A DNA stretch of 38,085 nucleotides, from IMG/VR virus record IMGVR_UViG_3300050014_000198, positions 1 to 38,085 of that record. One strand, given 5' to 3'. Shown piece after piece: positions 5,167 through 37,767 of this stretch. Position 1 is the stretch's first letter, and every line of letters starts with the position of its first letter. The stretch is from a virus. The notes beneath the pieces were generated by a model that was not told where the DNA came from, did no database searches, and saw nothing but the letters and a program-made list of their open reading frames with translations. A program made the translations under genes and the position numbers.

Positions 5167-5399
5167 GCTATATCACCCGCTCCTTCTGTTCCAGTAGGTC
5201 CATCTAAATCCATTGGTGAATGTCCTTCAGCAATATCTTCTCTACGGATCCACTGTACCTTTGTTGGAATATCCTTCTGTTCAGCAAGTGCGGCACATTT
5301 ATCACATAAAGCAATAAATGTCCTTGTCCAATATTCTGTATCTTTCCTACAAATACAGCATCGTTCATCATTGCCTTTATCAAAATATACATTAACCAT
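5163..5399 (-). CDS. Small zinc-finger protein
   Basis: A 78-residue protein with two Cys pairs, CCIC around residue 14 and CDKC around residue 33, separated by an aromatic stretch (YWTRTFIAL). This is a classic four-Cys zinc-finger arrangement. The C-terminal part is acidic and Gly-rich (DLDGPTGTEGAGD). It overlaps paralog C by 4 bases. A frame nested inside it (5204-5392) has no independent support. Function unknown. Confidence 0.75.
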   Translation of the reverse strand: MVNVYFDKGNDERCCICRKDTEYWTRTFIALCDKCAALAEQKDIPTKVQWIRREDIAEGHSPMDLDGPTGTEGAGDIA

Positions 5400-5470
5400 A
5401 ACTTTATTTTACTTTCTCTAGGTCCACCGATACTGATTTAGTAATATTGGTAACATAATGATATTTAATA

Positions 5471-5725
5471 TTAAACTTTAAATGTTACCCAAACAAATGA
5501 GTCTTTGGCAGAACCAGTCTCTGCTCCACCTACAAATACATGTTGGTGGTCTCCTTGATCTGTAATAACTGCCGTGGGAATCTTTTCCTTCACATTGTTT
5601 ACCAGTGTTTCGGGAGTCAACCCGTGACGATAATAATATGACTTATGATAACGAAACTGTCCTTTATACTTTCGGACATGTTTATCAGTTACCCCGAGCA
5701 AAGTTGCGACTTCAATTGTTTTCAT
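5471..5725 (-). CDS. Putative small HTH-containing protein
   Basis: An 84-residue protein. The N terminus (MKTIEVATLLGVTDKHVRKY) fits a helix-turn-helix of the type that selects DNA by an excisionase/MerR-like helix pair, followed by a basic Tyr-rich stretch (HKSYYYRHG). The C-terminal half is beta-like (HVFVGGAE, FVWVTF). It could be a transcription regulator, but only the N-terminal pattern supports that. It has its own promoter, with the ATG 8 nt from the -10 box. Confidence 0.7.
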   Translation of the reverse strand: MKTIEVATLLGVTDKHVRKYKGQFRYHKSYYYRHGLTPETLVNNVKEKIPTAVITDQGDHQHVFVGGAETGSAKDSFVWVTFKV

Positions 5726-5733
5726 ATGCTATC

Positions 5734-5761
5734 ACTATACAGACGTTTTATAATTTGTCAA
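5734..5761 (-). promoter_or_regulatory. Promoter for HTH-like gene, near-leaderless
   Basis: TTGACA (5756-5761), 16-nt spacer, TATAGT (5734-5739), 8 nt to the ATG at 5725. The TAG stop of the upstream gene (5735-5737) lies inside the -10 hexamer. Confidence 0.8.
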
Positions 5762-6040
5762 ATTACTTCGTTTTTCAAGAATCTCACAAAGTTTCGCCCT
5801 TACCCAACCAGAATAAAGAGTATCAACCAAAGATTGAAGGTCAAGAATATCCATCGTGTCTGCATTCTTTAATTGTTCATTTTCCCATGCCGTAAGTTCC
5901 AACATCTTATCTGTCTGAGACATGATGAAAGAAACCAACCCTGGCGGAAAATCATCCGAACAAAGACCAGTAGTGTTAATCGTATGACGAGTAATACGGG
6001 CCACATTAGCCACCAATATCCACTTGGGAGTTGTTTTCAT
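5735..6040 (-). CDS. Hypothetical protein
   Basis: A 101-residue, mainly alpha-helical protein. The N terminus MKTTPKWILVANVARITR resembles a short helix-turn-helix start but is not a clear match. The rest (MLELTAWENEQL, MDILDLQSLVDTLYSGW, LCEILEKR) is helical and mildly amphipathic. It has a dedicated promoter whose ATG distance (8 nt) matches its neighbour's, and its first residues (MKTTP against MKTIE) echo those of the downstream gene. Function unknown. Confidence 0.75.
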   Translation of the reverse strand: MKTTPKWILVANVARITRHTINTTGLCSDDFPPGLVSFIMSQTDKMLELTAWENEQLKNADTMDILDLQSLVDTLYSGWVRAKLCEILEKRSNLTNYKTSV

Positions 6041-6048
6041 ATGCTTAC

Positions 6049-6076
6049 ACTATACAGACTTTCTGTTGGATGTCAA
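6049..6076 (-). promoter_or_regulatory. Promoter for gene 5735-6040, near-leaderless
   Basis: TTGACA (6071-6076), 16-nt spacer, TATAGT (6049-6054), 8 nt to the ATG at 6040. It begins two bases after the AAA+ gene's stop. Confidence 0.8.
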
Positions 6077-6077
6077 A

Positions 6078-7610
6078 TTACTCCATTTTGTGGGGAAAAA
6101 ATTCCGCAATCAATTTACTTTGATCTCCAAGCAATCCAACCTGTTTTTCAAATTTATCATTTGTCGAATCAAAATGCATAACCTCATTGTACTCTTTTAC
6201 TTTGGTAAGAAACTTTTCATCATTCCAAAACTTTTCAAGTGCCAACGTTGCACACCTATTTTGGAACTGTGCCGCTGTTTCACCTTCTCCAAGCAATGTA
6301 GTTTCATCTATTAGTTCAGGATAATCAGACAAAATATGTTGAGCCAGCAGTTTCCGTTGTGGTTCAGCCATAAGACCTAAATTAATAGCTTTATCAATAC
6401 GTCCTGGTCTTGAACTTTTACCATTGCTATCAGGAACCCCCAAAGCAGGATCTAACTTATCAATATGATTAGTAGTAACAATAAGAAATACACCATCTGC
6501 TTGTTTTACACCACTAATACAATTTAATAAACAATCAAATGTAAGATGTGATATATTAACATTTTTAGCACCAATATATTCTCGTCCATTGAAAATAGCA
6601 TCAATATCCTCAATGAGTGCAATACAAGGAGTGTTTGACATCATTGCTTCCCACGAGTCAACTAAATCATTATTAGTCATTCCAGACAAATCAAAAATAT
6701 ATACTGGTAAATCAAATGACATACCTAATGCTCTAGTTAATGTACTTTTACCAGTTCCTGGAGTTCCATATAAAAGCCAACCACGTCTCCAAGGAATAGA
6801 TTTGGACCTGAACCATTTTTCATTCGTAAGCCATCCATTTAACTCTTTAATCGCTTCACCAACTTCATCAGGGAACGGATACCCCGTAAATGGGGACTGC
6901 CCTTCTTCAGGTTTAATTTGTAAATCTTCTCTTGACCATTTTAGAAGTTTAAAAACTCCCAACATAATCATTTTCATATTTCTCGAATCATCATTCATGG
7001 TAATTGAAGCAGGCACTGAATTAGATGAATCTTTACTTAAAGTTTCTTGTTGTTTATTTCCACTAGATATTCCAGCATACCGAACTATTTTAAATCTACT
7101 GATACAATTTAGTTTTTTATCTCCTTTTTGCTGACGTTTTTCGGAATTATAATACTCAATAGCATCGTTAACAAAACTTTCAACATTAAAAAACCATCTA
7201 AAGTATTTAATACTAATTAATCCAGACCTGGAATCATATTCTCCAACATCATACGTAGAAGTATTTCCATTGCCACTGGAAAGAGATAACAACGCATATT
7301 GTTTATTATATTTAATTAAAACTGGGTCACTATTAACCGATTCATAAGCGACTGATTCTGTCCATCGTTTAGGATGTACATAACATTCATATCCACCAAA
7401 AACTCGTTTACCAAGTGGTGAATGAATTCCACGAGTAAATGCATATGCCATTGCTGCTTGTCCCGCATCATCCTTTAAAATAGTTGTGCCTATGAATATT
7501 CCAACAAAGTATCTCCATCCAGTAGCAATATAACTCCAAGCACCAACAACAACTGCAAATGCGGCGGCAATTCCTCCACCTTGAAGTATAAATTTAGGTA
7601 TTTCTATCAT
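6078..7610 (-). CDS. Membrane-anchored AAA+ ATPase, BCS1-like
   Basis: A 510-residue protein. An N-terminal hydrophobic helix (about residues 11-42, with AAAFAVVVGAW) is followed by a beta-rich BCS1-N-like middle domain and a C-terminal AAA+ module. Walker A is GTPGTGKST (282-290), Walker B IALIEDIDAIF (330-340), sensor 1 TTNH (379-382) and the arginine-finger region RPGRID (401-406). BCS1 proteins are ring ATPases that move folded proteins across mitochondrial membranes; bacterial and phage relatives exist but their roles are little known. The gene overlaps the upstream small gene by 4 bases. An inner-membrane remodelling or translocation role during infection is inference. Confidence 0.88.
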   Translation of the reverse strand: MIEIPKFILQGGGIAAAFAVVVGAWSYIATGWRYFVGIFIGTTILKDDAGQAAMAYAFTRGIHSPLGKRVFGGYECYVHPKRWTESVAYESVNSDPVLIKYNKQYALLSLSSGNGNTSTYDVGEYDSRSGLISIKYFRWFFNVESFVNDAIEYYNSEKRQQKGDKKLNCISRFKIVRYAGISSGNKQQETLSKDSSNSVPASITMNDDSRNMKMIMLGVFKLLKWSREDLQIKPEEGQSPFTGYPFPDEVGEAIKELNGWLTNEKWFRSKSIPWRRGWLLYGTPGTGKSTLTRALGMSFDLPVYIFDLSGMTNNDLVDSWEAMMSNTPCIALIEDIDAIFNGREYIGAKNVNISHLTFDCLLNCISGVKQADGVFLIVTTNHIDKLDPALGVPDSNGKSSRPGRIDKAINLGLMAEPQRKLLAQHILSDYPELIDETTLLGEGETAAQFQNRCATLALEKFWNDEKFLTKVKEYNEVMHFDSTNDKFEKQVGLLGDQSKLIAEFFPHKME

Positions 7611-10424: not shown

Positions 10425-10734
10425 TTATCCTAATGCCCAGTTTGATACGTTAAGATGTGGCGGAACATCGTCTTTATTTGTAAATTCCCACGTTCGAAGT
10501 GCAACATTCCATCTAAACCATTGATTGCCCCATACGTGAGGATGTATTCCAGGTTCCATATATTCAACAATTAAATAATCATAAAGGCATTCATGCATAT
10601 CCCCCTCGGTTATCATTAACTGCCTCCGAAGCTTCACAATAAGTGTTATAGAATCCAAATGTACGACTACACAATGGATTACATTTCCGATCCTTCACCT
10701 CTTTACTTACAATTGCTGTAATAAACCATGCCAT
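10425..10734 (-). CDS. Conserved hypothetical protein, split by a frameshift at a GGGGG run
   Basis: Two reading frames together form one protein. The first (ATG 10734, stop 10591) gives MAWFITAIV, RTFGFYNTYCEASEAV, then NDNRGG. The second, offset by one base, continues DMHECLYDYLIVEYMEPGI and ends in SNWALG at 10425. The join recreates a familiar small family: WFxT start, RTxGY/F-x-x-x-x-EA-x-x-AV-x-x-N-x-x-D, then Y-x-Y-x-VIE-x-x-x-x-GI. The break is at a G5 run (+ strand C5, 10601-10605); skipping one G gives 102 residues. It may be a sequencing error, a real mutation or +1 programmed frameshifting. The ATG at 10598, with GAGGGGG upstream, might also allow independent translation of the second half. 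Confidence 0.75.
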
Positions 10735-10735
10735 A

Positions 10736-10915
10736 TTATTTCTTTATATTTTTAGGTTTCCTACGCTCGCAACCTTCACAAACACAAACTGGTTCTCCAG
10801 ATTCAATTTTCCATCCTATAATTTTCCAATGGGCAAACGTAATATCTTTTGCATCAATAAAAGTATGTTTTTCATTACATTCACAACATTGGATGTTCCA
10901 TTTACTTAATGCCAT
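10736..10915 (-). CDS. Small four-Cys zinc-finger protein
   Basis: A 59-residue protein: MALSKWNIQCCECNEKHTF, then a central amphipathic region (HWKIIGWKIESGEP) and VCVCEGCERRK near the C terminus. The CxxC-type pairs at both ends suggest a zinc ribbon. It starts almost at the predicted transcription start (6 nt after the -10 box), so its mRNA should be leaderless. The stop is one base before the start of the frameshifted gene. Function unknown. Confidence 0.75.
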   Translation of the reverse strand: MALSKWNIQCCECNEKHTFIDAKDITFAHWKIIGWKIESGEPVCVCEGCERRKPKNIKK

Positions 10916-10921
10916 CCAAAT

Positions 10922-10949
10922 ACTCTACACTATTTTGAGAATATGTCAA
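10922..10949 (-). promoter_or_regulatory. Promoter for zinc-finger gene, leaderless
   Basis: TTGACA (10944-10949), 16-nt spacer, TAGAGT (10922-10927), 6 nt to the ATG at 10915. The TGA stop of the upstream gene (10946-10948) lies inside the -35 hexamer. Confidence 0.75.
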
Positions 10950-11356
10950 TTTTTAAAGCATTGAGGGAATATCTTTGCCAATTCTATATTTTCTAATCTT
11001 AATTCTTCTTTTTTCTTTTCAACAATTTGTTTTTTATAAATTACATTAATTTCATTCCAAATTGAAGTCTGTTCATGTTGAGTAAATTCAGTCTGATTAA
11101 AATTGAAAAGTTTAAGTGTTTTCTTCTCGTTAGGATAAGAGTCGTGTAAAAATGTTGTGATAACATAATTAATCTTTGGATGTTTTATTAAATATAATTG
11201 TGGAAAATAACCTCCGAGGAATTCTACCTCAAAACTCCATTCTTGGAAATTAAGTTCTGTTAAATCTTTTATTATAGATTTAGCAATACACCCCAATTCG
11301 GGTGGTGGAACTGGTAATTTGGATTCATTAACTATTTTCTTTTTAAATGGCCACAT
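10946..11356 (-). CDS. MWPFKKK-family protein, copy 1
   Basis: A 136-residue protein, tandem paralog of the next upstream gene. Both start MWPFKKKI, have a CIAK(S/T)I segment near residue 23 or 14, a WxxE/K-type aromatic middle, an HPxINY motif, a Q-x-x-IW segment, a charged helix and a C-terminal FPxCF. The hydrophobic-basic N terminus may touch the membrane. Starts 4 bases downstream of copy 2. Function unknown. Confidence 0.75.
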   Translation of the reverse strand: MWPFKKKIVNESKLPVPPPELGCIAKSIIKDLTELNFQEWSFEVEFLGGYFPQLYLIKHPKINYVITTFLHDSYPNEKKTLKLFNFNQTEFTQHEQTSIWNEINVIYKKQIVEKKKEELRLENIELAKIFPQCFKN

Positions 11357-11360
11357 AAAT

Positions 11361-11771
11361 TTATTCTTTAGAATTATTAAAACATTTTGGAAAAAATTCC
11401 GTCAACCTCTTTTCATCTCTTTCACTCTGTTTTTCTTCTTCAAGAGAATAAACTTGGTTAAAAATATCAATAAGTTTTCTCCAAATTAGACGTTGTTCAT
11501 CCCAAGTTAGGGTAGAATCATCAACTCCAATTATGCTCACTCCATCCCAAAAGTCAGTGTATTTTTCATTGGCATATGAAGAAAGTCCATAATTTATTCC
11601 AGGATGATAAAAATTATATTTATGGTATATATTACTGTGAGTGTTAAGCAGTGTATCAGTTGCCCATGATTTAATTACCCATGATTTATAATCAAGAGTT
11701 TCCAACTCTGCAAGGATTGTCTTGGCAATACAACTTAATTCTGGTTTAATTTTCTTTTTAAATGGCCACAT
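11361..11771 (-). CDS. MWPFKKK-family protein, copy 2
   Basis: A 136-residue tandem paralog of 10946-11356. It shares the MWPFKKKI start, CIAKTI, HPGINYG, RLIWRKLIDIFNQ and the C-terminal FFPKCF. The first codons of the two copies are identical at the DNA level, while the middles have diverged, in particular around the acidic loop DFWDGVSIIGVDDS found only here. A single-gene tandem duplication explains the pair. Function unknown. Confidence 0.75.
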   Translation of the reverse strand: MWPFKKKIKPELSCIAKTILAELETLDYKSWVIKSWATDTLLNTHSNIYHKYNFYHPGINYGLSSYANEKYTDFWDGVSIIGVDDSTLTWDEQRLIWRKLIDIFNQVYSLEEEKQSERDEKRLTEFFPKCFNNSKE

Positions 11772-11777
11772 ATTATT

Positions 11778-12041
11778 TTAAGTGTGAGGGTTGAATCCGT
11801 TCTTTGAAATATATCCGTTTTGTTTGCCACCGACACGAGTCATCTCACATTTATTTCCGCCAATGGTAGCAGATTTCTGCCGCCATACAACGGCATCTTT
11901 ATCGGCAGGAACAATATCATGCCATCCAATAACGGAAGGAATACGAGCATCCCGATAATTCTCACATTTACATAATTTGTCTATCATTATGCATTTTAAC
12001 TTGTGCTTGGATTTTCCAAACATTAATTTAAATAATTTCAT
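11778..12041 (-). CDS. Hypothetical basic protein
   Basis: An 87-residue Lys-rich protein (FGKSKHKLKC) with four Cys (two in KLCKCENY). The C-terminal part is Gly/Asn-rich (GGKQNGYISKNGFNP). It is the most upstream minus-strand gene before the plus-strand island. No promoter of the common type is clear in the 49-base divergent gap. No recognised family. Confidence 0.7.
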   Translation of the reverse strand: MKLFKLMFGKSKHKLKCIMIDKLCKCENYRDARIPSVIGWHDIVPADKDAVVWRQKSATIGGNKCEMTRVGGKQNGYISKNGFNPHT

Positions 12042-12042
12042 A

Positions 12043-12071
12043 TTTACAGATTAATTCTATTATGGTATAGT
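12043..12071 (+). promoter_or_regulatory. Possible promoter for the LAGLIDADG gene
   Basis: TTTACA (12043-12048), 17-nt spacer, TATAGT (12066-12071), 19 nt before the ATG at 12091. The -10 matches the common box of this genome; the -35 is one mismatch off and the spacer one base longer. Confidence 0.4.
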
Positions 12072-12090
12072 AACTACATATTTATCTGAT

Positions 12091-12975
12091 ATGAACAATA
12101 CACCAATTCTAAGGTATAGTCAAATTCAAAATGAATTCTTGTTAACCAATTATCCAATTTATGGAGCAGCATATTGTGCGAATGCACTTCAACGAACAGT
12201 AGTTTCTGTTAGATCACGCATCCAAAAAATGAAATTACATGTTAAAAATATGTCGGAAATTATGTTAAATCATTATATTAAACCGAATAAAGAATTTAAT
12301 ATAAATGCCGATTTATTTATTAACCCATTACTCCCCGAAGTTATTTATACAATGGGACTTTTATGGGCAGATGGAAACATTCATATAGATAAAAATGTTA
12401 GAGAGGTTGAACTTACTTCAACATATCCAGATGGAGACGAGTTTTATAAAATTATGTCATCATATGGAAAATGGAACTATTATAAATACAATAAACAACA
12501 CAAGAATTATAAACATCTTAAACCAAGAATTATAATTAAAACAAACAATAGACCGTTAACAACATTTTTTTCATTATATGATTACAAATCAAAATCTGTA
12601 AACTCTGCGGATAAAATATTAAACATTATACCAACACATTTACATTATTATTGGTTTAGAGGATTATTTGATGGGGATGGTGGAATTTATATTAAAGATA
12701 AACGGGTTCAAATAACTATTTCTGGACCATATGAACAATCGTGGAATTATTTAACTTCAATGTTAACCAACGTTGGAGTAACATTTCATTTATATCGTAG
12801 AATTTCTAACAAAAATCATAAGTGTTCATATATTCAGATTAATGGTGCAAAAAATTCTTCCAAATTTTTATCATACATTTATAAAAATGCAGAAACGGAT
12901 AAAATTTATTTAACAAGAAAATATAAAAAATGGAAACAATTAAAACAACATTATCAATTAGATAACAATGTATAA
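12091..12975 (+). CDS. LAGLIDADG homing endonuclease
   Basis: A 294-residue protein with two LAGLIDADG helices: YTMGLLWADGNIH near residue 88 and YWFRGLFDGDGGIY near 191, the usual spacing of a single-chain two-domain enzyme. The N-terminal about 60 residues (ILRYSQIQNEFLLTNY, then TVVSVRSRIQKMKL) look like a helix-turn-helix targeting segment. It is free-standing, with no intron or intein signs, and runs opposite to most genes. Its AT content appears high even for this genome. Such genes copy themselves into homing sites during mixed infection. Confidence 0.9.
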   Translation: MNNTPILRYSQIQNEFLLTNYPIYGAAYCANALQRTVVSVRSRIQKMKLHVKNMSEIMLNHYIKPNKEFNINADLFINPLLPEVIYTMGLLWADGNIHIDKNVREVELTSTYPDGDEFYKIMSSYGKWNYYKYNKQHKNYKHLKPRIIIKTNNRPLTTFFSLYDYKSKSVNSADKILNIIPTHLHYYWFRGLFDGDGGIYIKDKRVQITISGPYEQSWNYLTSMLTNVGVTFHLYRRISNKNHKCSYIQINGAKNSSKFLSYIYKNAETDKIYLTRKYKKWKQLKQHYQLDNNV

Positions 12976-13004
12976 ATCAATATTTTATATACTTTTTAAA
13001 AATG

Positions 13005-13263
13005 TTAATCAATAAAAATAAATTTAATACAATTAGTTATATAAGAAAAATTAAAAATATATAATGTAATTAAATACAAAAGAACAATAGGCCACATAAA
13101 AAGTATTGATATCAAAAATATGATATCACCATAATTAAAAATCTGTTTAGTCTTCGTATTAAATTTTTTAATTCCAATAAAAGCACATACAGAAAAAAAT
13201 AATCCCATTATAAAATATAAATGCATAAAATTAAAAATAATCAGTTTTAATAACAAGTTTCAT
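13005..13263 (-). CDS. Small membrane protein, probable frameshift near the start
   Basis: The body (about 70-80 residues) has two membrane segments: FIMGLFFSVCAFIGI and the longer IIFLISILFMWPIVLLYLITL region. A promoter of the common type ends 9 nt before an ATG at 13263, but that frame reads MKLVIKTDYF and stops. Removing one T from the TTTTT run (+ strand A5, about 13233-13240) joins it to the body (next residues NFMHLYF), giving 85 residues. Alternatives are internal starts at Met codons near 13226 or 13208, without a good ribosome site. The same one-base shift is needed in two other genes of the window. Confidence 0.6.
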
Positions 13264-13272
13264 AGTGACCAT

Positions 13273-13300
13273 ACTCTACACTATTTATATGGGATGTCAA
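13273..13300 (-). promoter_or_regulatory. Promoter for small membrane gene, near-leaderless
   Basis: TTGACA (13295-13300), 16-nt spacer, TAGAGT (13273-13278), 9 nt to the ATG at 13263. Divergent from the plus-strand promoter 17 bases away. Confidence 0.75.
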
Positions 13301-13316
13301 GACTATCAGTTTAAAT

Positions 13317-13344
13317 TTGACAATTCATCAATTGACTGTATTAT
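13317..13344 (+). promoter_or_regulatory. Plus-strand promoter for small membrane protein gene, near-leaderless
   Basis: TTGACA (13317-13322), 16-nt spacer, TATTAT (13339-13344), 9 nt to the ATG at 13354. The same geometry as on the minus strand selects 13354 rather than 13348 as the start. Confidence 0.75.
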
Positions 13345-13353
13345 AGGATGAAG

Positions 13354-13485
13354 ATGAAAAAACTATGGAATAAGATAAAATGGAAATTGGAGTGCATATT
13401 TGTACTCTGTATTATCGTACCCACTGTAATATTATTCCTTTGGAATAAGACTGAATATGATGAAAACCGTGAGCAATATGATTGA
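13354..13485 (+). CDS. Small single-pass membrane protein
   Basis: A 43-residue protein with a basic N terminus (KKLWNKIKWK), one membrane helix (IFVLCIIVPTVILFLW) and a short acidic tail (TEYDENREQYD), predicted to insert with the N terminus in the cytoplasm. An ATG at 13348 is also in frame but lies only 3 nt after the -10 box, upstream of the expected transcript start. Its stop overlaps the start region of the next plus-strand gene. Function unknown. Confidence 0.65.
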   Translation: MKKLWNKIKWKLECIFVLCIIVPTVILFLWNKTEYDENREQYD

Positions 13486-16424: not shown

Positions 16425-16854
16425 TCCATTCTCCTATAGATATAAGTTCATTTTTAATAAGTTTCCAATCAGTCTTTGGTTCAAACCCTGCTCGGTCATC
16501 AATCAATACATTAAAATAGAATTTCTTCGAAAAGTCACTTCTCTCAGTATCCTGAGCATGTGAATTGCTATTGAGATAATCAAAATAAATTCCATTATCA
16601 TCTAACCAAAAAAATACATTTATAATTCGTTTAATAGGAGTACTGGTCCATAAAATCATTATAATATCTTTACGCCTAGACATCCACTGAAGGACTTCTT
16701 TGGCATATGGATAGAATACCAGTTTCTCAGTCTTATCTTTGGATGTTTTACCACTTGGAATGATAGTACCGTGAAGGTCAATACAGAAGTAAACTTCTGG
16801 CCAACCCCGTTCTTTCTTCATTTCAAATGTTTTTCTAATATTAAAAATATTCAT
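16393..16854 (-). CDS. HAD-like hydrolase family protein with altered motif I
   Basis: A 153-residue protein with the small HAD layout: motif I CIDLHGTII near residue 26, motif II ILWTSTP near 66, and a C-terminal FNVLIDDRAGF near 117. In active HAD phosphatases motif I is usually DxDGT; here the second Asp is His (DLHGT), so the general acid is missing and phosphatase activity may be altered or lost. It overlaps the NAD synthetase gene by 4 bases, so both are on one transcript. The role is unknown. Confidence 0.78.
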   Translation of the reverse strand: MNIFNIRKTFEMKKERGWPEVYFCIDLHGTIIPSGKTSKDKTEKLVFYPYAKEVLQWMSRRKDIIMILWTSTPIKRIINVFFWLDDNGIYFDYLNSNSHAQDTERSDFSKKFYFNVLIDDRAGFEPKTDWKLIKNELISIGEWNVNTPLLRKH

Positions 16855-17921
16855 TTAATATATTTTTCCAATTCTTTTAACTCTTCAGCATATCCACCAG
16901 TCAGAATCGGAGTCCTGCACCAAGTCCTCGGATCTAGATTGTGGTCATCCATATGAAAACTTAATGCATACCGTTCACGTTTCCACTGGTTCATAGAAAA
17001 CAACTTAAAAAATTTAGTAATATCTTTAATAAGTTGATTATTATCTTCACCACTTTTTACAAAACTGGTATTTACCTTAATAGCGTGATAGATTTCAACT
17101 GGCGTATAACGATTCTTTACCACCATTGTCTCAATCATATGCAATAACCAATACGGCATCAAATCATCTTCATCCGTTTGATTACATTCCTTTGGTCGTA
17201 ATTCAGCAGTCGGTTGCTGTTCATTAACATATTTTAATGCAGGACATACTCCCAATGGTGCTGGACCTAACTTTTCTGCCCAATCAAGAAACTTTTTAAT
17301 ATATACCTTTGGAAGTCCTCCAATTGGAGCAACACATCCAGCAGTATCACCATCCATAGTAGCATATCCAACCGCTGCCTCACTCATATTGCTTGTGGTA
17401 AGCAATAACTTGCCTTGCATATTTGCGATAATCCAAATTCCAGGAGCACGAACCCTCGCTTGCAAATTCTGCAATACAATATCGTTATCTTTAAAATTCA
17501 ATGGCGAACCTTGAATAACCTCTCCAAGCTTGGAATATTCTTTCATTAATGGTTCAACATCAAATTCATAATGAGGAATACCCAATTGTTTTGTCAATTT
17601 TTCAGCAGCATTTCTAGTTACTTCACCACTTTGTGCGGTCGCTTGGTATGCAGTTGTGATTAACTTTTTAATCAATAATCCTACATTAGGATAATCTTTC
17701 AAATGTGGGCAGTATTTTTTAATGAATAATTCTTCCCCAAGTTCATAAACTCCTAAACGAATTCCTGATGCACAAAGATATGTCACCATAGAAGAATCGG
17801 CACCACCACATATTAACACTTGTCCACCACAATGAGAACAATATTCTGTATCACACCCAGGTATATGTGTAAACCCAGGATCAACTTCACAATCATGGCA
17901 CTTTTTTAAATTATTTAACAT
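16851..17921 (-). CDS. nadE: NAD synthetase (ammonia-type, long NadE-like), with N-terminal zinc ribbon
   Basis: Adenylates and amidates nicotinate adenine dinucleotide to NAD+. Signatures are CGGADSS (PP-loop, usually SGGxDS), NLQARVRAPGIW, TSNMSEAAVGYATMDGDTA, API-GGLPK, PTAELRP and QTDEDDLMPY. It lacks the glutaminase domain, so it would use ammonia. An extra N terminus of about 35 residues (CHDC, H, GCD, CSHCGG) looks like a zinc ribbon that runs directly into the PP-loop. Length 356 residues. It belongs with the nicotinamidase and NMN adenylyltransferase genes further right. Confidence 0.9.
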   Translation of the reverse strand: MLNNLKKCHDCEVDPGFTHIPGCDTEYCSHCGGQVLICGGADSSMVTYLCASGIRLGVYELGEELFIKKYCPHLKDYPNVGLLIKKLITTAYQATAQSGEVTRNAAEKLTKQLGIPHYEFDVEPLMKEYSKLGEVIQGSPLNFKDNDIVLQNLQARVRAPGIWIIANMQGKLLLTTSNMSEAAVGYATMDGDTAGCVAPIGGLPKVYIKKFLDWAEKLGPAPLGVCPALKYVNEQQPTAELRPKECNQTDEDDLMPYWLLHMIETMVVKNRYTPVEIYHAIKVNTSFVKSGEDNNQLIKDITKFFKLFSMNQWKRERYALSFHMDDHNLDPRTWCRTPILTGGYAEELKELEKYIK

Positions 17922-26768: not shown

Positions 26769-27581
26769 TTACCAATCGATCGATTTACAAATTTTCATTC
26801 CTCGCTTGGACATATTTAAGACAAAATCTTGTCCCAACTTCTCAAATCCAGTTACAGAACTACTACAATCAGTCAAAAGTGTAAATTTTTTAATATTATC
26901 ATCGCCAAAATTATTAGCAATATCAGTAATAGACGAAGCAACGCAATGACTTAAAGCTTCGCCAGTGATAAGAATCTCATCAGCTTCAGAAAGAGTATCT
27001 AACAAATTCGTATTGAGTTTTGTACTTGGATCATTATCATCAGGACAGTCCGCCATCAAAATAGAATAATGTTCACTCGCCATATTACTACCTTTAGCAA
27101 CGAAGTTAATACGACTAAAGGTATCCTTTTCCCACTTATACAATGCCTCTGCAACCACAGGAACGATACTATGTCCCCATGATCCAATCAAACAATGTAC
27201 TGGCCAGATAACAAGAACATACCGACCATTTTTCTTAAGTGTCTCCACATACGACAATGCCTTACCTTGCCATTGTGGATTAAATGCCCTCCAAACTCCA
27301 TTCTTGACATCGTCAACGGAAATCATTGTAAATGGATTGGGGTGCTCTCCTTTGGAATTAACCCAAAACGATGGGTGAGCAATATGCACATATTGATGAG
27401 AATCCAATGTACAGTGAATTTCTGTAATACGTTTTTGATTTTTATTGATAAAACTTCCCAAGCGAGTCATATCTGCTTCGGCACCTGCAACAACAAGTTG
27501 CCCTTTTTCTCCACCTGGACCCTTTGCAATACAAAAATCATTTTGCGGGTCAATTGTAATTAGATGAACTGTCTTTGCCAT
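26769..27581 (-). CDS. pncA: Nicotinamidase/isochorismatase-family hydrolase
   Basis: A 270-residue cysteine hydrolase that would deamidate nicotinamide to nicotinate. The catalytic triad is visible as D11 (IDPQNDF), K163 (FVAKGSN) and C213 (GEALSHCV); the metal site is D60, H62 and H66 (CTLDSHQYVHIAH). WPVHC near 127 is another family hallmark. It lies upstream of the endonuclease and 116 bases downstream of the NMN adenylyltransferase gene. The product would enter the Preiss-Handler route, completed here by NadM-like and NadE-like enzymes, given a phosphoribosyltransferase from host or phage. Confidence 0.9.
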   Translation of the reverse strand: MAKTVHLITIDPQNDFCIAKGPGGEKGQLVVAGAEADMTRLGSFINKNQKRITEIHCTLDSHQYVHIAHPSFWVNSKGEHPNPFTMISVDDVKNGVWRAFNPQWQGKALSYVETLKKNGRYVLVIWPVHCLIGSWGHSIVPVVAEALYKWEKDTFSRINFVAKGSNMASEHYSILMADCPDDNDPSTKLNTNLLDTLSEADEILITGEALSHCVASSITDIANNFGDDNIKKFTLLTDCSSSVTGFEKLGQDFVLNMSKRGMKICKSIDW

Positions 27582-27697: not shown

Positions 27698-28621
27698 TTA
27701 TCCCTTGTAATGATTGAACCAATTTTTAAACATACCAAAAATTGGTCTGTGAGTTGGATTTATATCAGTATCTTTAAGATCATTAATATTTTTCCATTGA
27801 ACAAAACTTAAATCATCTGCTGCAACTGGTGTTCCAGTAAAATATCTCATTGCATATAAAAATGTCATTATTTTATCAATTTCATTTCTATATCGAACAT
27901 CATCAACCACCATACTTCCAATATAAGTTTCAACACCGACTAACAAACTTGTTTCTTCCAAAGTTTCTCTCACTGCCGCAGTTTCAGCACTCGTATCCTT
28001 TAATGGATCCATAAATCCACCTGGGAATCGTAAAAGTGTTTCTCCTGATTTTTGTCCGAGCAATATTTCATCGGTATCAAAATTGATAATAGCCATATCC
28101 ACCGTTGGCTTAAAAGAAGGATATTGATTCTCCATGGCATGAACAACACCCTTGCGCCAATCTTCTGTAGGAAGTCCTTTAATACCAATACGTTTGCGAA
28201 TTTCACTTGCGGAAATAAACTTATTAGGCACCAATTCAACGGTAGGAAACTTACCTTTATATGAATCAATAAAGCTACTCCTGCTTCCATATAATACTAC
28301 TTTATTGGATGGTCCAATAAGTTTACTTATTTGGCGGTCAAGATTTTTGCTCCAGATATCATCATCAAAAACATCTTCAATATAATAAGTTTCAACATCT
28401 GGATATTTCTCCTCCAGCATTGCTTTGCGAGCAGCAAAATCCAATGGGTTTCTCATTGTGCATTTAAGATGTGCAAGACCTAAGAATACTAATACTCTTG
28501 GATGATTGGATGTGACACGATTGAGAATATCAATGTGTCCTTCGTGAAGGAATGGACTCTGGAAACGGGCGATAATAACACCCACTTCAGCAACTTCGGC
28601 AACTGTCTTTAGTTCGTTCAT
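27698..28621 (-). CDS. nadM: Bifunctional NMN/NaMN adenylyltransferase-Nudix hydrolase
   Basis: A 307-residue two-domain protein. The N-terminal adenylyltransferase has ARFQSPFLHEGH (19-30) and ISASEIRKRI (136-145). The C-terminal Nudix domain has the box PGGFMDPLKDTSAETAAV then RETLEETS (200-225). The first joins ATP and (nicotinamide or nicotinate) mononucleotide; the Nudix half can hydrolyse ADP-ribose and return ribose 5-phosphate for PRPP. The same fusion is known from cyanobacteria and several large phages. A 100-nt leader precedes it. Confidence 0.93.
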   Translation of the reverse strand: MNELKTVAEVAEVGVIIARFQSPFLHEGHIDILNRVTSNHPRVLVFLGLAHLKCTMRNPLDFAARKAMLEEKYPDVETYYIEDVFDDDIWSKNLDRQISKLIGPSNKVVLYGSRSSFIDSYKGKFPTVELVPNKFISASEIRKRIGIKGLPTEDWRKGVVHAMENQYPSFKPTVDMAIINFDTDEILLGQKSGETLLRFPGGFMDPLKDTSAETAAVRETLEETSLLVGVETYIGSMVVDDVRYRNEIDKIMTFLYAMRYFTGTPVAADDLSFVQWKNINDLKDTDINPTHRPIFGMFKNWFNHYKG

Positions 28622-33509: not shown

Positions 33510-33980
33510 TTAAAAAACATCTCCATTCTCTATTTGTTCATTCCAATGTGCCATAATATCCATTACAGTTTTGGGCAATCCTTCCCGGTCCCAGTAAAAC
33601 CCTACTTTAGACCAACCGGGATGGTTGGGGTCTAGGGCATCTGCACAAACTATATTATTTTCAAGGATTTTTAATATATCGGGATCTTTAGAACCAAGGG
33701 ATAATCGTTCTCTACATTCTTTTGCATTAGTATCATCCAACTCAACTCCATAAATAGTTGACAATGCTTGATTATGAGAAATACCATTTTTCATTTTTAT
33801 TTCTAGCACCGCAGATAAAAACTGACCGTTGCCACAAGAGTTATCCAAAAACGTTTTTTCAGGGTTAGTGAACAACTCGGGAGGAATTTTGCCCAACATC
33901 TCATTAACTAGCGGAGTTGGTGTAAACACTTCCCCACGTTGCTTAATGGCTTGTTTAGAATGTTTACGAATGTGACTCAT
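33510..33980 (-). CDS. N6-adenine methyltransferase-like protein, short, lacking NPPY
   Basis: A 156-residue protein. GEVFTPTPLVNEMLGKIPP near residue 17 and the SAM motif FLDNSCGNGQFL near 44 are typical of restriction-type N6-adenine methyltransferases, as is VCADALDP near 111, but the chain ends before the catalytic NPPY motif. It overlaps the giant gene by 17 bases. The giant protein has its own copy of the same layout (HTPMKLVNEIMGK, DPHCKTGTFL, NPPY). It could be a partner or SAM-binding regulator, or a remnant of a second methyltransferase. Confidence 0.78.
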   Translation of the reverse strand: MSHIRKHSKQAIKQRGEVFTPTPLVNEMLGKIPPELFTNPEKTFLDNSCGNGQFLSAVLEIKMKNGISHNQALSTIYGVELDDTNAKECRERLSLGSKDPDILKILENNIVCADALDPNHPGWSKVGFYWDREGLPKTVMDIMAHWNEQIENGDVF

Positions 33981-36900
33981 TGGGGAGAAAATCCTTCCAG
34001 AAATCTTTACGAAAAGTTGCTAAAATATCTCTATTTAACTCAGTTTGAGCCACAACACACATTTCCATAATAGTACGAAATTTGGAAGTATTCATAGCAA
34101 AAGCAATTAGAGGAACATTTTCTGGTGTATCTACAATACCCTTAGCAAACTGCGTCATACCATATTCTCCTTTGTTATCTGCCATATATCCAACCGATTT
34201 TATAACCCCACCAGCAAATATAACTTTCGGAACACCAAAATGTCCTCTATCATTTTTTGATGAATACCATAATGTAGGATTTCCTTGTTTATCTATGTAG
34301 TACACACATGGATATTTAAATATATCTGTTTTTACATGAGACATCCATTCACCGTTTTTATGGTGATATGCACTATCACTTAGTATTTCGCAGTTTTCTT
34401 CACCGTTTTTTGCAATTAACTTTTCAATAACATCAAACATGCCATTAGGAATAAACTTCCACTTTTTTAAATCAATATTCCACGTTTTTCCATCTTCACC
34501 TTTAACGGTGGTGGTCTTAGTTGGACTAGTGTTTTGCCATACATACCAATCATATCGGGTTGTGGCACCAAAAGTTTTTAATCCATCATCTGCATTATGT
34601 ATTTCTAAATAATACATTTGTCCATTATTTAAAGTAGCAGTTACTTCTTCCATTCTAACTCCCAATCCCCTCCAACCAGCGGGATGAACTAAACACATAT
34701 ATCCATTATCTTTTAGTAATGATTTATTTAAAACAACAAACTTATCCCATAATGTATGACCTCTACTTTTATTTTCATTAGAATTAGCATTATAGGGTGG
34801 ATTTCCAACAATTGTATCAAACTTTTTCATATTCTTGCTAATAAATATAGCAAGTTCGTTGTCATTATTCAAGTTTTTATATTGAATATTTATAAGTCCT
34901 GATATATGACGAGCAATCACAAGATACACTGGATCATTTTCGATACCCATTATTTGGAGTTGAATATCAGTATCTAGAACTCCCCGTTCTTTTAACATTT
35001 GATGCACCCATCTTAAAAATGTTCCAGTCTTACAATGAGGATCTAAAAAACACATTCCATTAATATCATTTTTATGAATTTTGGCAATAGATGCCCACTT
35101 ACCCATAATCTCATTCACCAATTTCATGGGGGTGTGGATTTTACCTTCATCAGTATTAGCATAGAAATAACTATTGATGTCATCCTCACCCAAGTCCTTA
35201 CCAAAAGTAGTTTCAAGAATGACACTATGAAGGTTAGCAGTCAACTTGTCATCGAGTGGCCATCGTTGAATGCACCCGATAATTTTCTTGGCTTGTTCGT
35301 CGGAAGAGAACCCGAAATGTTCCACAAACAGCATGAATGCTTTTGGGTTGGTCTTGATAGTTTCTAGGATATCACTATACTTTATGTTGTGTTTCTCAAT
35401 GTCTCGCAACTCCATTCCCTTCACTGAGCAATAAATAGATGCCATGTTCAAGACACTCTCATAAAGCAATCGGCGAGCAAGGACAACTGCTTGGGTGAAG
35501 TGGTCAGTTGGGGTCTTTTCGTCATCATTACTATCATTGATGGTATTGATTGTCTGAGCATCGCTAAAAGCTGCCGTATTCACAAAATGCTTTAATGTAT
35601 CACGCTGTTGCTTGGTAAGTGACTTCTTAGTAGATGCCCATTTGACGAACTCCATGAAGTCATCCATATCTCCCATACCAAGAACCATATCCCTAATTTC
35701 AGTGCGAGCATACATTGACCTACCCGCCTTAACAAAGGACGAATAATCAGTATCAGAAAAAGATACTTTCTTCTCAACAAGACCAAGTTGGTTCATCTGA
35801 AATACATCTATGACTTCATATAACCGAGTAGCAGCAATTTTTACGGGAATCCCGGCTCGGGATTGCTCATTGATTTCACTATAGATATAATTATCAATAA
35901 GAGATGAGTTTGGTGTCAGAGATAAATCAAAAATATGACCCTGTAATTTGTCATTTCCATAATAATCTTTACCAGGAGTAAGTACCCGTGACAATTTTTG
36001 CTCTGCTGAGTCCACGGGAAGATCGTCTCTGTAGAATACCGTGGCATCAATTTGAGATACGCTAAAACTTCGCTGGGCCAAGGTCATAGCCAAAAACACT
36101 ACACCTTTACCATCGATTTTGGACCTATCAATCTCACGATTAGCAAACTTTTCTGCCTTTTTGTTGTTTGTAGCGGGAGTACCTCCTTTGGAAAATGCTC
36201 CCCACTTTTGCCAGTGCCCCATACTGTCTTTCTTTACCTCTCCACAAACAGGTATGAAGTTCCAACAGGCGGATAACTCTGGGTCGTTGTTAAGCACTTC
36301 TGCCAACTCCCGCAAATGCTTCTTTGTCATTCCGCCTCCTGCACTCACCCACGCTATGACAACCCGAATTTCTTTTCCTTTAGTACACTGACGATAATCA
36401 ATCCGACATCCTTTAAGTTTACCAATTCCGAGAAATTGTTTCCATATATTCTGATGAACTGATGCATACTTTAATGGCATTTTGTTAATCTTAGTATAGG
36501 AAAACCCAATACGAAGGTCGTCATCACCCATCTCACGATGTACTTTCTCAATATCTTGGATAATATCCTGCCCCACACTGAGACCATAGAACACGGGGTT
36601 TACGAGTTTGTCTGCCGTATGATAATTACTAGTTGGAAGACTATCAATAAAATCTATCTCACACTTATTCCTAACAACATCTAGTGTCTTGCGATACTGA
36701 GGTGTAAAAAGATAATGACTTCTGTTTCTGATATGCAAAAGTTCAATATAGCTAATACGAATAGCTAACGCCTTAACCCTGTCGCTCAGTTCCATTTTAA
36801 AATTGACCTTATCCTCTCCTGTTCCTGAGAAAATATCTATTTTTACGCCGGGCAATGCTTTTTGCAACTGTTTTAACTTGTACTGGCTCTTATCCGTAGC

Positions 36901-37767
36901 AGACCCAAAATCAACTTCATCCATTTTAATGACAGTCTTGGATGCGACGGCATGTTGTTTAAGATATTCGCAGATTTCAATGTTTTTATCTCGCTCTTTA
37001 TCCCCACAAAGAGAAACCGCAATAACCTTTTTGCCGCTTGTCAAATTAGTGGGTAAATTGACAATTTCAACCGAGGAGTCTGTGGCATCGTACATTTCAA
37101 TGTCTGCAAACTCTGCCCAAGATTCAAGTTCGGTTACGAATGATGTCACAGGACTTAAATTGTACTGAACAAGGACAAGTAAAGTATCATCGCTCTCAAG
37201 GAATTCAGACAACTCTCTAAGGGTTTTACCAAACCGAGGACATGAGAACTCAGCAATGATATCCTCACCAACAAGCGTTCGACGAGTATCAGCACGCCTT
37301 GCCTTGTTCCATGCTTGCCACAAATAAGGAATAAAAGACGGCTTCTTAGAGATAATAGCTTTCTTACATACTTGCCATTTCCATTTATTATTGATAGCAA
37401 TATTAATACAGTTATCAATCTCTTTCCAGTCTAAATTAATAAACACTTCGCTGTTAGTATGCTTGCCTTTAGCGTTCCCTTTATCTGGGTTCTTATATCC
37501 TTTGAGGCGAAGCATTTTGTGAATAAATTCATCAGGTTCGACATTTTTACCACCAATAGTTTCCACCAAAAACGTATTTGTCTTTGTTAATCGGAATAAA
37601 GTAGAATCAAATTTAATATCTCGCTTATGAATAGAAGACAAATCAAGGTCGGGTCTATGACCAAGCATGTCATTAAATCTCTTAGTTAAGTCTAATGTAA
37701 CACCTACTTTAATTCTCGATTTTTCTGTGGGTAACGGATGCTCTGGACAACCATATATTGTAATCAT
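33964..37767 (-). CDS. Single-chain restriction-modification-like protein: GIY-YIG-like, SF2 helicase, N6-adenine methyltransferase, target recognition
   Basis: A 1,267-residue protein. Residues about 1-115 resemble T5orf172/GIY-YIG (IYGCPEH, IKVGVTLDLTKRF, EFIHKMLRLKGY, SEVFI). An SF2 ATPase follows: PRFGKT at 177-182 (motif I), DEVDFG at 283-288 (motif II), FSGTGE at 313-318 (motif III-like) and AEQKLSRVLTPGK at 588-600 (motif VI-like). Then a helical coupler, a methyltransferase with HTPMKLVNEIM (878-888), FLDPHCKTGTFL (907-918) and NPPY (989-992), and a C-terminal region that may recognise DNA sequence. The order nuclease-translocase-methyltransferase-recognition is that of Type ISP enzymes (LlaGI), which instead carry an Mrr-like nuclease. 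Confidence 0.85.
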   Translation of the reverse strand: MITIYGCPEHPLPTEKSRIKVGVTLDLTKRFNDMLGHRPDLDLSSIHKRDIKFDSTLFRLTKTNTFLVETIGGKNVEPDEFIHKMLRLKGYKNPDKGNAKGKHTNSEVFINLDWKEIDNCINIAINNKWKWQVCKKAIISKKPSFIPYLWQAWNKARRADTRRTLVGEDIIAEFSCPRFGKTLRELSEFLESDDTLLVLVQYNLSPVTSFVTELESWAEFADIEMYDATDSSVEIVNLPTNLTSGKKVIAVSLCGDKERDKNIEICEYLKQHAVASKTVIKMDEVDFGSATDKSQYKLKQLQKALPGVKIDIFSGTGEDKVNFKMELSDRVKALAIRISYIELLHIRNRSHYLFTPQYRKTLDVVRNKCEIDFIDSLPTSNYHTADKLVNPVFYGLSVGQDIIQDIEKVHREMGDDDLRIGFSYTKINKMPLKYASVHQNIWKQFLGIGKLKGCRIDYRQCTKGKEIRVVIAWVSAGGGMTKKHLRELAEVLNNDPELSACWNFIPVCGEVKKDSMGHWQKWGAFSKGGTPATNNKKAEKFANREIDRSKIDGKGVVFLAMTLAQRSFSVSQIDATVFYRDDLPVDSAEQKLSRVLTPGKDYYGNDKLQGHIFDLSLTPNSSLIDNYIYSEINEQSRAGIPVKIAATRLYEVIDVFQMNQLGLVEKKVSFSDTDYSSFVKAGRSMYARTEIRDMVLGMGDMDDFMEFVKWASTKKSLTKQQRDTLKHFVNTAAFSDAQTINTINDSNDDEKTPTDHFTQAVVLARRLLYESVLNMASIYCSVKGMELRDIEKHNIKYSDILETIKTNPKAFMLFVEHFGFSSDEQAKKIIGCIQRWPLDDKLTANLHSVILETTFGKDLGEDDINSYFYANTDEGKIHTPMKLVNEIMGKWASIAKIHKNDINGMCFLDPHCKTGTFLRWVHQMLKERGVLDTDIQLQIMGIENDPVYLVIARHISGLINIQYKNLNNDNELAIFISKNMKKFDTIVGNPPYNANSNENKSRGHTLWDKFVVLNKSLLKDNGYMCLVHPAGWRGLGVRMEEVTATLNNGQMYYLEIHNADDGLKTFGATTRYDWYVWQNTSPTKTTTVKGEDGKTWNIDLKKWKFIPNGMFDVIEKLIAKNGEENCEILSDSAYHHKNGEWMSHVKTDIFKYPCVYYIDKQGNPTLWYSSKNDRGHFGVPKVIFAGGVIKSVGYMADNKGEYGMTQFAKGIVDTPENVPLIAFAMNTSKFRTIMEMCVVAQTELNRDILATFRKDFWKDFLPNESHS

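What the first reader, a model, noticed from the sequence alone, without database searches (positions are those of the whole stretch)
33510..37767. Single-chain GIY-YIG/SF2 helicase/N6-methyltransferase protein with a short methyltransferase-like partner
Seen: one 1,267-residue frame with a GIY-YIG-like N terminus, helicase motifs PRFGKT/DEVDFG/FSGT/Q-x-LSR, methyltransferase motif I and NPPY, and a C-terminal extension; downstream, overlapping by 17 bases, a 156-residue protein with motif I but no NPPY. Known: Type ISP enzymes (LlaGI, LlaBIII) fuse an Mrr-family nuclease, translocase, methyltransferase and recognition domain. Inference: this is an ISP-like enzyme with a different nuclease module, carried by a phage, perhaps to attack competing phages or host DNA while methylating its own. 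Motif I reads DPHCKTGTF instead of DPxCGTGTF, which may matter.
Basis: partly seen in the sequence, partly recalled or inferred. Interest (0 to 1): 0.85.

Follow-up and report, generated by a model that had tools for sequence, protein, structure and literature searches.

The report
Phage-carried three-part restriction-modification machine
A large bacterial virus carries a DNA-cutting and DNA-marking machine of a kind so far described only sketchily in bacteria (named after the enzyme DrdVI): one long protein joins the cutter, the motor and half of the marking enzyme, and the small neighbouring gene supplies the other half; the same kit, in several arrangements, turns up in many other large viruses.

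Summary
The 1,267-aa protein (33964-37767, minus strand) and the 156-aa protein (33510-33980) are the R-M2 fusion and the M1 subunit of a DrdVI-type ("split methylase") Type IIG-like restriction-modification system. Bacterial relatives (plasmid pDrdVI; 80 loci read here) encode M1, M2 and a GIY-YIG/SF2 R protein side by side. M1-2.DrdVI makes m6A at GCAGCC (PMC6430315). The two "oddities" are the family signature: M2 reads DPxxK[ST]G plus NPPY in all readable bacterial loci; M1 keeps GxG but has no NPPY. So the K in DPHCKTG is no defect, and M1 most likely supplies the SAM site. Fused R-M2 plus M1 also exists on Firmicutes plasmids. A 61%-identical copy in another phage keeps gene order and the 17-base overlap, but its target-recognition region falls to 35%. 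Similar operons occur in cyanophage S-CAM7, Lak phages, LR756508 and dozens of viral contigs; 13 of 42 distinct R proteins there are single chains. Motor residues are universally kept. The nuclease call rests on a sub-threshold T5orf172 match, profile alignment and family conservation; structure prediction failed. Activity, specificity and benefit to the phage are untested.

The parts
33964..37767 (-). R-M2 fusion protein, 1267 aa: GIY-YIG-like domain, SF2 motor, helical linker, M2 methyltransferase half, target-recognition region
   Evidence: ORF; homologue L003 61%; Pfam; DrdVI-family profile alignments
37393..37767 (-). Residues 1-125: T5orf172/GIY-YIG-like nuclease domain (Y5, K20-V-G22, R30, D79, H83, E107)
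   Evidence: T5orf172 sub-threshold E=0.0056; hhalign to nine DrdVI-type R proteins 4.8e-6 over residues 2-303; columns conserved
35848..37335 (-). Residues 145-640: SF2 helicase-like motor (Q151, RFGKT 178-182, DE 283-284, SGT 314-316, RSFSV 566-570, Q590/R594)
   Evidence: Conserved across 46 viral R proteins; blastp to S-CAM7 R 4e-15 and hhalign 3.5e-13
35158..35847 (-). Residues 641-870: helical linker between motor and methyltransferase (predicted, low confidence)
   Evidence: Mostly helical in a low-confidence model; 69% identical to L003
34783..35157 (-). Residues 871-995: M2 methyltransferase core with motif X, degenerate motif I (DPHCKTG) and catalytic NPPY
   Evidence: N6_Mtase/Eco57I; hhalign to bacterial M2 1e-16
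35023..35043 (-). DPHCKTG: family-wide K-type motif I of M2
   Evidence: K in 73/73 readable bacterial M2; DPHCKTG also in L003
34792..34803 (-). NPPY catalytic motif
   Evidence: NPP in 77/77 bacterial M2
34018..34782 (-). Residues 996-1250: target-recognition region, highly diverged between the two phage homologues
   Evidence: Identity drops from 68-69% to 35% here, then 88% in residues 1251-1267
33510..33980 (-). M1 subunit, 156 aa: motif X (GEVFTP) and intact motif I (DNSCGNGQF), no NPPY
   Evidence: N6_Mtase 9.5e-7; hhalign to bacterial M1 7.7e-25; 77% in L003
33964..33980 (-). 17-nt gene overlap, also present in L003

Best explanation
This is a phage-borne DrdVI-type restriction-modification system. 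M1 and the M2 half of the long protein together form one adenine-N6 methyltransferase: M1 contributes the SAM-binding half (motifs X-I-III), M2 the catalytic NPPY and the target-recognition region. The same recognition region directs the fused SF2 motor and the N-terminal GIY-YIG nuclease, so that unmethylated sites trigger ATP-dependent translocation and cutting, while methylated phage DNA is spared. Shown: both genes, motifs, family membership, conservation, diverged recognition region. Inferred: that M1 is the SAM-binding partner (about 0.65), that the nuclease is active (about 0.65), and that the target is competing phage/plasmid or host DNA (about 0.5).
For: Bacterial loci carry M1 + M2 + GIY-YIG/SF2 R, including pDrdVI. 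M1-2.DrdVI methylates GCAGCC, m6A (PMC6430315); M1/M2.MaeIV 'split methylase' gives GCACY (PMC10113651); DrdVI is described as 'a fused translocase and REase' with a GIY-YIG relative (PMC4996451). Fused R-M2 with separate M1 occurs on three Firmicutes plasmids, one (L020) in the window's gene order. Profile matches: M2 1e-16, M1 7.7e-25, GIY-YIG-to-motif II 4.8e-6. Complementary signature: M2 = K-type motif I + NPPY; M1 = GxG without NPPY, and in viral loci M1 keeps [DE]xxCGxG in nearly all readable cases while M2 often lacks any readable motif I. M1 pairs with NPPY halves that have no motif I in PTm1 and P-SSM2, is permuted behind one in Aeh1 and fused ahead of one in FNU4. Motor residues K181, E284, Q590, R594 in 46/46 viral R proteins. 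Recognition region diverges while the rest is conserved.
Against: The T5orf172 match to the window itself is below Pfam's cut-off. With the 80-member R profile the window aligns only in three weak collinear pieces (P 0.006-0.39). AlphaFold models had pLDDT 43 and 52 and settle nothing. In L003 the catalytic motif reads NAPY. Some viral M2 have GGG in motif I instead of K, so M2 may bind SAM itself in some lineages. No activity data for any phage member.
Confidence: 0.8

Rival explanations
1. Modification or anti-restriction only: the phage uses M1+M2 to methylate its own DNA against host restriction, and the nuclease/motor part is silent or serves another role (for instance protection at DNA entry, as proposed for P1 DarB-type proteins).
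For: M1+M2 without R occurs in several phages (PTm1, Aeh1, P-SSM2, S-SKS1; 750-aa M2-M1 chains L113-L115). Some contigs carry up to five M2 genes per R and M1, which would suit broad self-protection.
Against: Motor residues are kept in 46/46 viral R proteins and the GIY-YIG-like Y and G also; residues 1-650 are as constrained as the MTase core. No DarB-like phage hit in tblastn.
Confidence: 0.2
2. Type ISP-like single-chain enzyme (LlaGI/LlaBIII kind) with a swapped nuclease.
For: Same overall order: nuclease, SF2 motor, helical coupler, N6-MTase, recognition domain (ISP architecture from established knowledge).
Against: No profile match to any PDB chain at E<=10; nuclease is T5orf172-like, not Mrr; needs a separate M1 by family analogy; clear DrdVI-type relatives.
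Confidence: 0.03
3. Defective remnant acquired from a bacterium and decaying.
For: Motif I of M2 is non-canonical; L003 has NAPY for NPPY.
Against: Intact full-length ORFs in two phages under purifying selection, same overlap; K-type motif is universal in readable bacterial M2.
Confidence: 0.04

Closest known systems
DrdVI system of Deinococcus wulumuqiensis NEB 479 (plasmid pDrdVI; M1.DrdVI, M2.DrdVI, DrdVI; Type IIG-like)
   Same: Same three functional parts: short M1 with GxG and no NPPY, M2 with DPxxKSG + NPPY + recognition region, R with GIY-YIG and SF2 motor.
   Different: DrdVI has three genes (M1-M2-R); the phage fuses R to the N terminus of M2 and puts M1 last; sequence identity is low (16-20%); carrier is a phage.
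Fused R-M2 plus M1 systems on Enterococcus, Staphylococcus and Companilactobacillus plasmids (compare PADLOC model PDLC03626, 'REase_MTase_IIG')
   Same: Same fusion order GIY-YIG/SF2-M2 with a separate M1; Companilactobacillus L020 has M1 downstream.
   Different: 1445-1481 aa; in the R tree they sit apart from the window lineage, so the fusion may have arisen more than once (long branches make this unsure).
Synechococcus phage S-CAM7 genes 53-56
   Same: Phage-borne R, M2, M1 in one operon; closest isolate relative of the window's motor (blastp 4e-15).
   Different: R split in two genes, M2 separate with GGG motif I.
Huge phage LR756508 and Prevotella phages Lak-A2/Lak-C1
   Same: Single-chain GIY-YIG/SF2/M2 of 1255 and about 1438 aa with an M1 gene nearby.
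   Different: Motif I of M2 lost; Lak carries extra catalytic/recognition halves on the other strand.
Type ISP enzymes LlaGI, LlaBIII
   Same: Works similarly in outline: nuclease, SF2 translocase, coupler, N6-MTase and recognition in one chain.
   Different: Mrr-type nuclease, complete MTase without M1, no detectable sequence kinship here.
OspHL35III-type systems (PMC4752239)
   Same: GIY-YIG nuclease, translocase and MTase/recognition parts.
   Different: MmeI-like MTase and three separate proteins by that paper's description.

Membership tests
DrdVI-type split-methylase R-M | M1 subunit: motif X and GxG motif I, no NPPY, adjacent to M2 | tested here: met
   hhalign 7.7e-25 to bacterial M1; DNSCGNGQF; no NPPY; 17-nt overlap
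DrdVI-type split-methylase R-M | M2: DPxxK[ST]G, NPPY, C-terminal recognition region | tested here: met
   DPHCKTG, NPPY; hhalign 1e-16; diverged region 996-1250
DrdVI-type split-methylase R-M | R: T5orf172/GIY-YIG nuclease domain | tested here: inconclusive
   Sub-threshold Pfam 0.0056, profile alignment 4.8e-6, conserved columns; AlphaFold model unusable
DrdVI-type split-methylase R-M | R: SF2 motor with intact motifs I, II, III, VI | tested here: met
   RFGKT, DE, SGT, QxxxR aligned with relatives
DrdVI-type split-methylase R-M | m6A methylation needing M1+M2, and ATP-dependent cleavage | not testable with these tools
   Needs expression and long-read sequencing
Type ISP (LlaGI/LlaBIII) | N-terminal Mrr-type PD-(D/E)XK nuclease | tested here: not met
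   Only T5orf172 matched at the N terminus; no PD-(D/E)XK hit
Type ISP (LlaGI/LlaBIII) | Sequence kinship with ISP enzymes of known structure | tested here: not met
   No PDB chain at E<=10 for the window/L003 profile; presence of LlaGI/LlaBIII in that copy was not separately checked
Type ISP (LlaGI/LlaBIII) | Single polypeptide sufficient for methylation | not testable with these tools
   Conserved M1 partner argues against
BREX (PglX) or Type III | PglX or Mod/Res family assignment | tested here: not met
   No PglX or Type III model for either window protein in PADLOC at E<=1; best are generic MTase_I/II

The most novel reading that the evidence does not exclude
Large phages as a group carry complete restriction-modification machines built from exchangeable cartridges: one motor-nuclease, one SAM-binding subunit (M1) and one or several catalytic/recognition halves (M2), sometimes fused, in tandem arrays of up to five, or on inverted segments that could be switched. 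The functional methyltransferase is assembled in trans from M1 and whichever M2 is present, so a phage could change or multiply its restriction specificity by swapping M2 alone.
Probability: 0.4. Interest if true: 0.75.

Novelty: new variant of a known kind. Interest (0 to 1): 0.55.

Why it matters
Phages are usually discussed as targets of restriction; here a complete, conserved cut-and-mark machine sits on the phage side, and the same kit appears in a cyanophage isolate, Lak megaphages and many metagenomic large phages. If active, it would be a weapon between phages or against host DNA. The family also offers a testable rule for split methyltransferases: the subunit with the intact SAM motif lacks the catalytic motif and vice versa. 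I found no paper describing this in phages in the library searched, which lacks most subscription papers.

Tried and rejected
Two AlphaFold jobs (residues 1-680 and 630-1267) gave pLDDT 42.9 and 51.9, so no fold search was run on them. A pattern scan of viral contigs from a short window/S-CAM7 motor alignment found only the window's own phage. Direct tblastn of the long protein finds nothing in plasmids and one phage: distant kinship needed intermediates. Considered and dropped: BREX/PglX, Type III, DarB-like antirestriction, ISP, remnant. No convincing inverted or tandem M2 cassette was found near the window's genes. The R tree has long branches; only its well-separated groups are used.
Full report
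OBSERVATION. The two reading frames are real: 33964-37767 (1,267 aa) and 33510-33980 (156 aa), both on the minus strand, overlapping by 17 nt. The window is a 38,085-base virus record. A second viral contig, IMGVR 3300036766_000806 (L003), carries both genes in the same order with the same 17-nt overlap, at 61% and 77% identity. Another contig, L002, carries the identical pair. Substitutions are strongly purifying.

DOMAINS. Pfam finds N6_Mtase (5.5e-10) and Eco57I (2.3e-9) in the C-terminal half of the long protein and N6_Mtase (9.5e-7) in the short one. The N terminus gives only T5orf172, a GIY-YIG subfamily, below the curated cut-off in the window (E=0.0056) and in L003 (0.021), but over almost the whole domain. 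The SF2 motor is not recognised by Pfam; its motifs are readable and align with those of relatives.

RELATIVES. Following the short protein and a huge-phage hit led to a three-gene arrangement in MT835565 and phage NatCom_35866: a short M1, an Eco57I-type M2 (DPACKTG and NPPY in MT835565), and a 960-974-aa protein with clear T5orf172 (3e-10, 2e-9) and ResIII domains. tblastn of that R protein finds 79 plasmids. One is pDrdVI of Deinococcus wulumuqiensis NEB 479, with M1, M2 and R genes side by side. [quoted passage not shown] On Enterococcus, Staphylococcus and Companilactobacillus plasmids R and M2 are one 1,445-1,481-aa chain beside a separate M1. PADLOC has a 1,359-position model, PDLC03626, that spans both a motor and an M2-like half; the R and M2 proteins of MT835565 match it at 1.4e-27 and 5.7e-57.

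SIGNATURE. The window shows exactly this split: DPHCKTG + NPPY in the long protein, DNSCGNGQF without NPPY in the short one. Profile alignment of window/L003 to these bacterial sets gives 1e-16 for M2 and 7.7e-25 for M1. For the N-terminal part, a nine-sequence set gives 4.8e-6 across residues 2-303, through GIY-YIG and motor motifs I-II; the 80-locus set gives only three weak collinear pieces. Bridging phage sequences strengthen the case: window to S-CAM7 R 4e-15 (blastp in a small set), S-CAM7 to LR756508 1.7e-9, Lak to bacterial R 4e-34.

WHO BINDS SAM. In the viral loci M1 keeps motif I in nearly all readable cases ([DE]xxCGxG), while M2 has K, GGG, or no readable motif I, with NPPY, NPPF or a close variant (regular-expression reading). 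M1 occurs next to catalytic halves that start at the NPPY segment and have no motif I: PTm1 gp277/gp279, P-SSM2 36/37; LR756508 has such a free-standing half; Aeh1 ORF084c has the NPPY half then M1 in one chain; FNU4_28 has M1 then the NPPY half. The simplest reading is that M1 and the NPPY-recognition half make one active site; the K-type domain in M2 is a degenerate copy. This is inference from sequence.

SPECIFICITY REGION. Between window and L003, residues 1-995 are 68-69% identical in every domain, residues 996-1267 35%, and the last 17 residues 88%. That pattern is expected of a recognition region that has been exchanged or diversified in a restriction-modification protein.

DISTRIBUTION IN PHAGES. 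In the 80 contigs read, R-M2-M1 operons are common. Of 42 distinct R proteins, 13 are single-chain fusions with M2, 20 separate, 9 split in two. Across 46 viral R proteins including the window, the Walker lysine, the motif II glutamate and the motif VI glutamine and arginine are invariant; Y5 and G22 of the GIY-YIG-like domain too, K20 in 39 (the alignment is at low identity). Isolates or curated genomes with it: S-CAM7, Lak-A2/C1, LR756508. The R tree puts the window with S-CAM7 and LR756508 and apart from Lak and the Firmicutes fusions, but long branches make this unsure.

FUNCTION. Best explanation: an ATP-dependent restriction-modification enzyme of DrdVI type, run by the phage, which marks phage DNA and cuts unmarked DNA, of competitors or host. 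Retention of motor and nuclease residues argues against a pure protective methylase; phages with M1+M2 only show that this role probably also exists. No activity, recognition sequence or cut position is known for the phage members, and the papers read report methylation for DrdVI, not a cleavage assay.

LIMITS. No usable structure. IMG/VR calls of 'viral' were not re-checked contig by contig. The literature search covers open-licence papers only.

Noticed in passing
L024 (Lak-A2) 10539-13399; L010 (Lak-C1) 5270-6612: Lak phages carry extra catalytic/recognition half-proteins on the opposite strand behind the main gene, with inverted repeats (108 nt, 95%, at 10539-10646 and 13292-13399 in Lak-A2), and Lak-A2 and Lak-C1 differ in the recognition part of the main protein; looks like switchable specificity cassettes.
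   Followed up: partly
L117 2463-8966; L130 3-8947; L163 11621-17236: Viral contigs with up to five tandem M2 (NPPY plus recognition) genes beside one R and one M1.
   Followed up: partly
L013 3292-5450 (Vibrio phage phi-ST2): A LEM-3-like GIY-YIG domain fused directly to an NPPY half without a motor, followed by M1, inside a 7-deazaguanine biosynthesis gene cluster.
   Followed up: partly
L012 5134-6381 (Aeromonas phage Aeh1 ORF084c); L113-L115 7153-9402: Circularly permuted methyltransferase (NPPY-recognition half, then M1) in Aeh1; single-chain M2-M1 proteins of 750 aa without R in long viral contigs (one of 365 kb).
   Followed up: partly
L004 9006-9773: 256-aa protein of unknown family between the stand-alone NPPY half and M1 in huge phage LR756508; no Pfam or PADLOC match.
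   Followed up: no
window 16851-17921, 26769-27581, 27698-28621, 1620-2744: NAD synthetase, nicotinamidase-like (by eye), cytidyltransferase/NMN adenylyltransferase-Nudix and RNA ligase genes: an NAD-salvage set of the kind seen in large phages.
   Followed up: partly
L003 16392-17582: A second N6-methyltransferase-like protein with motif I and NPPY in the phage that carries the closest homologue.
   Followed up: no
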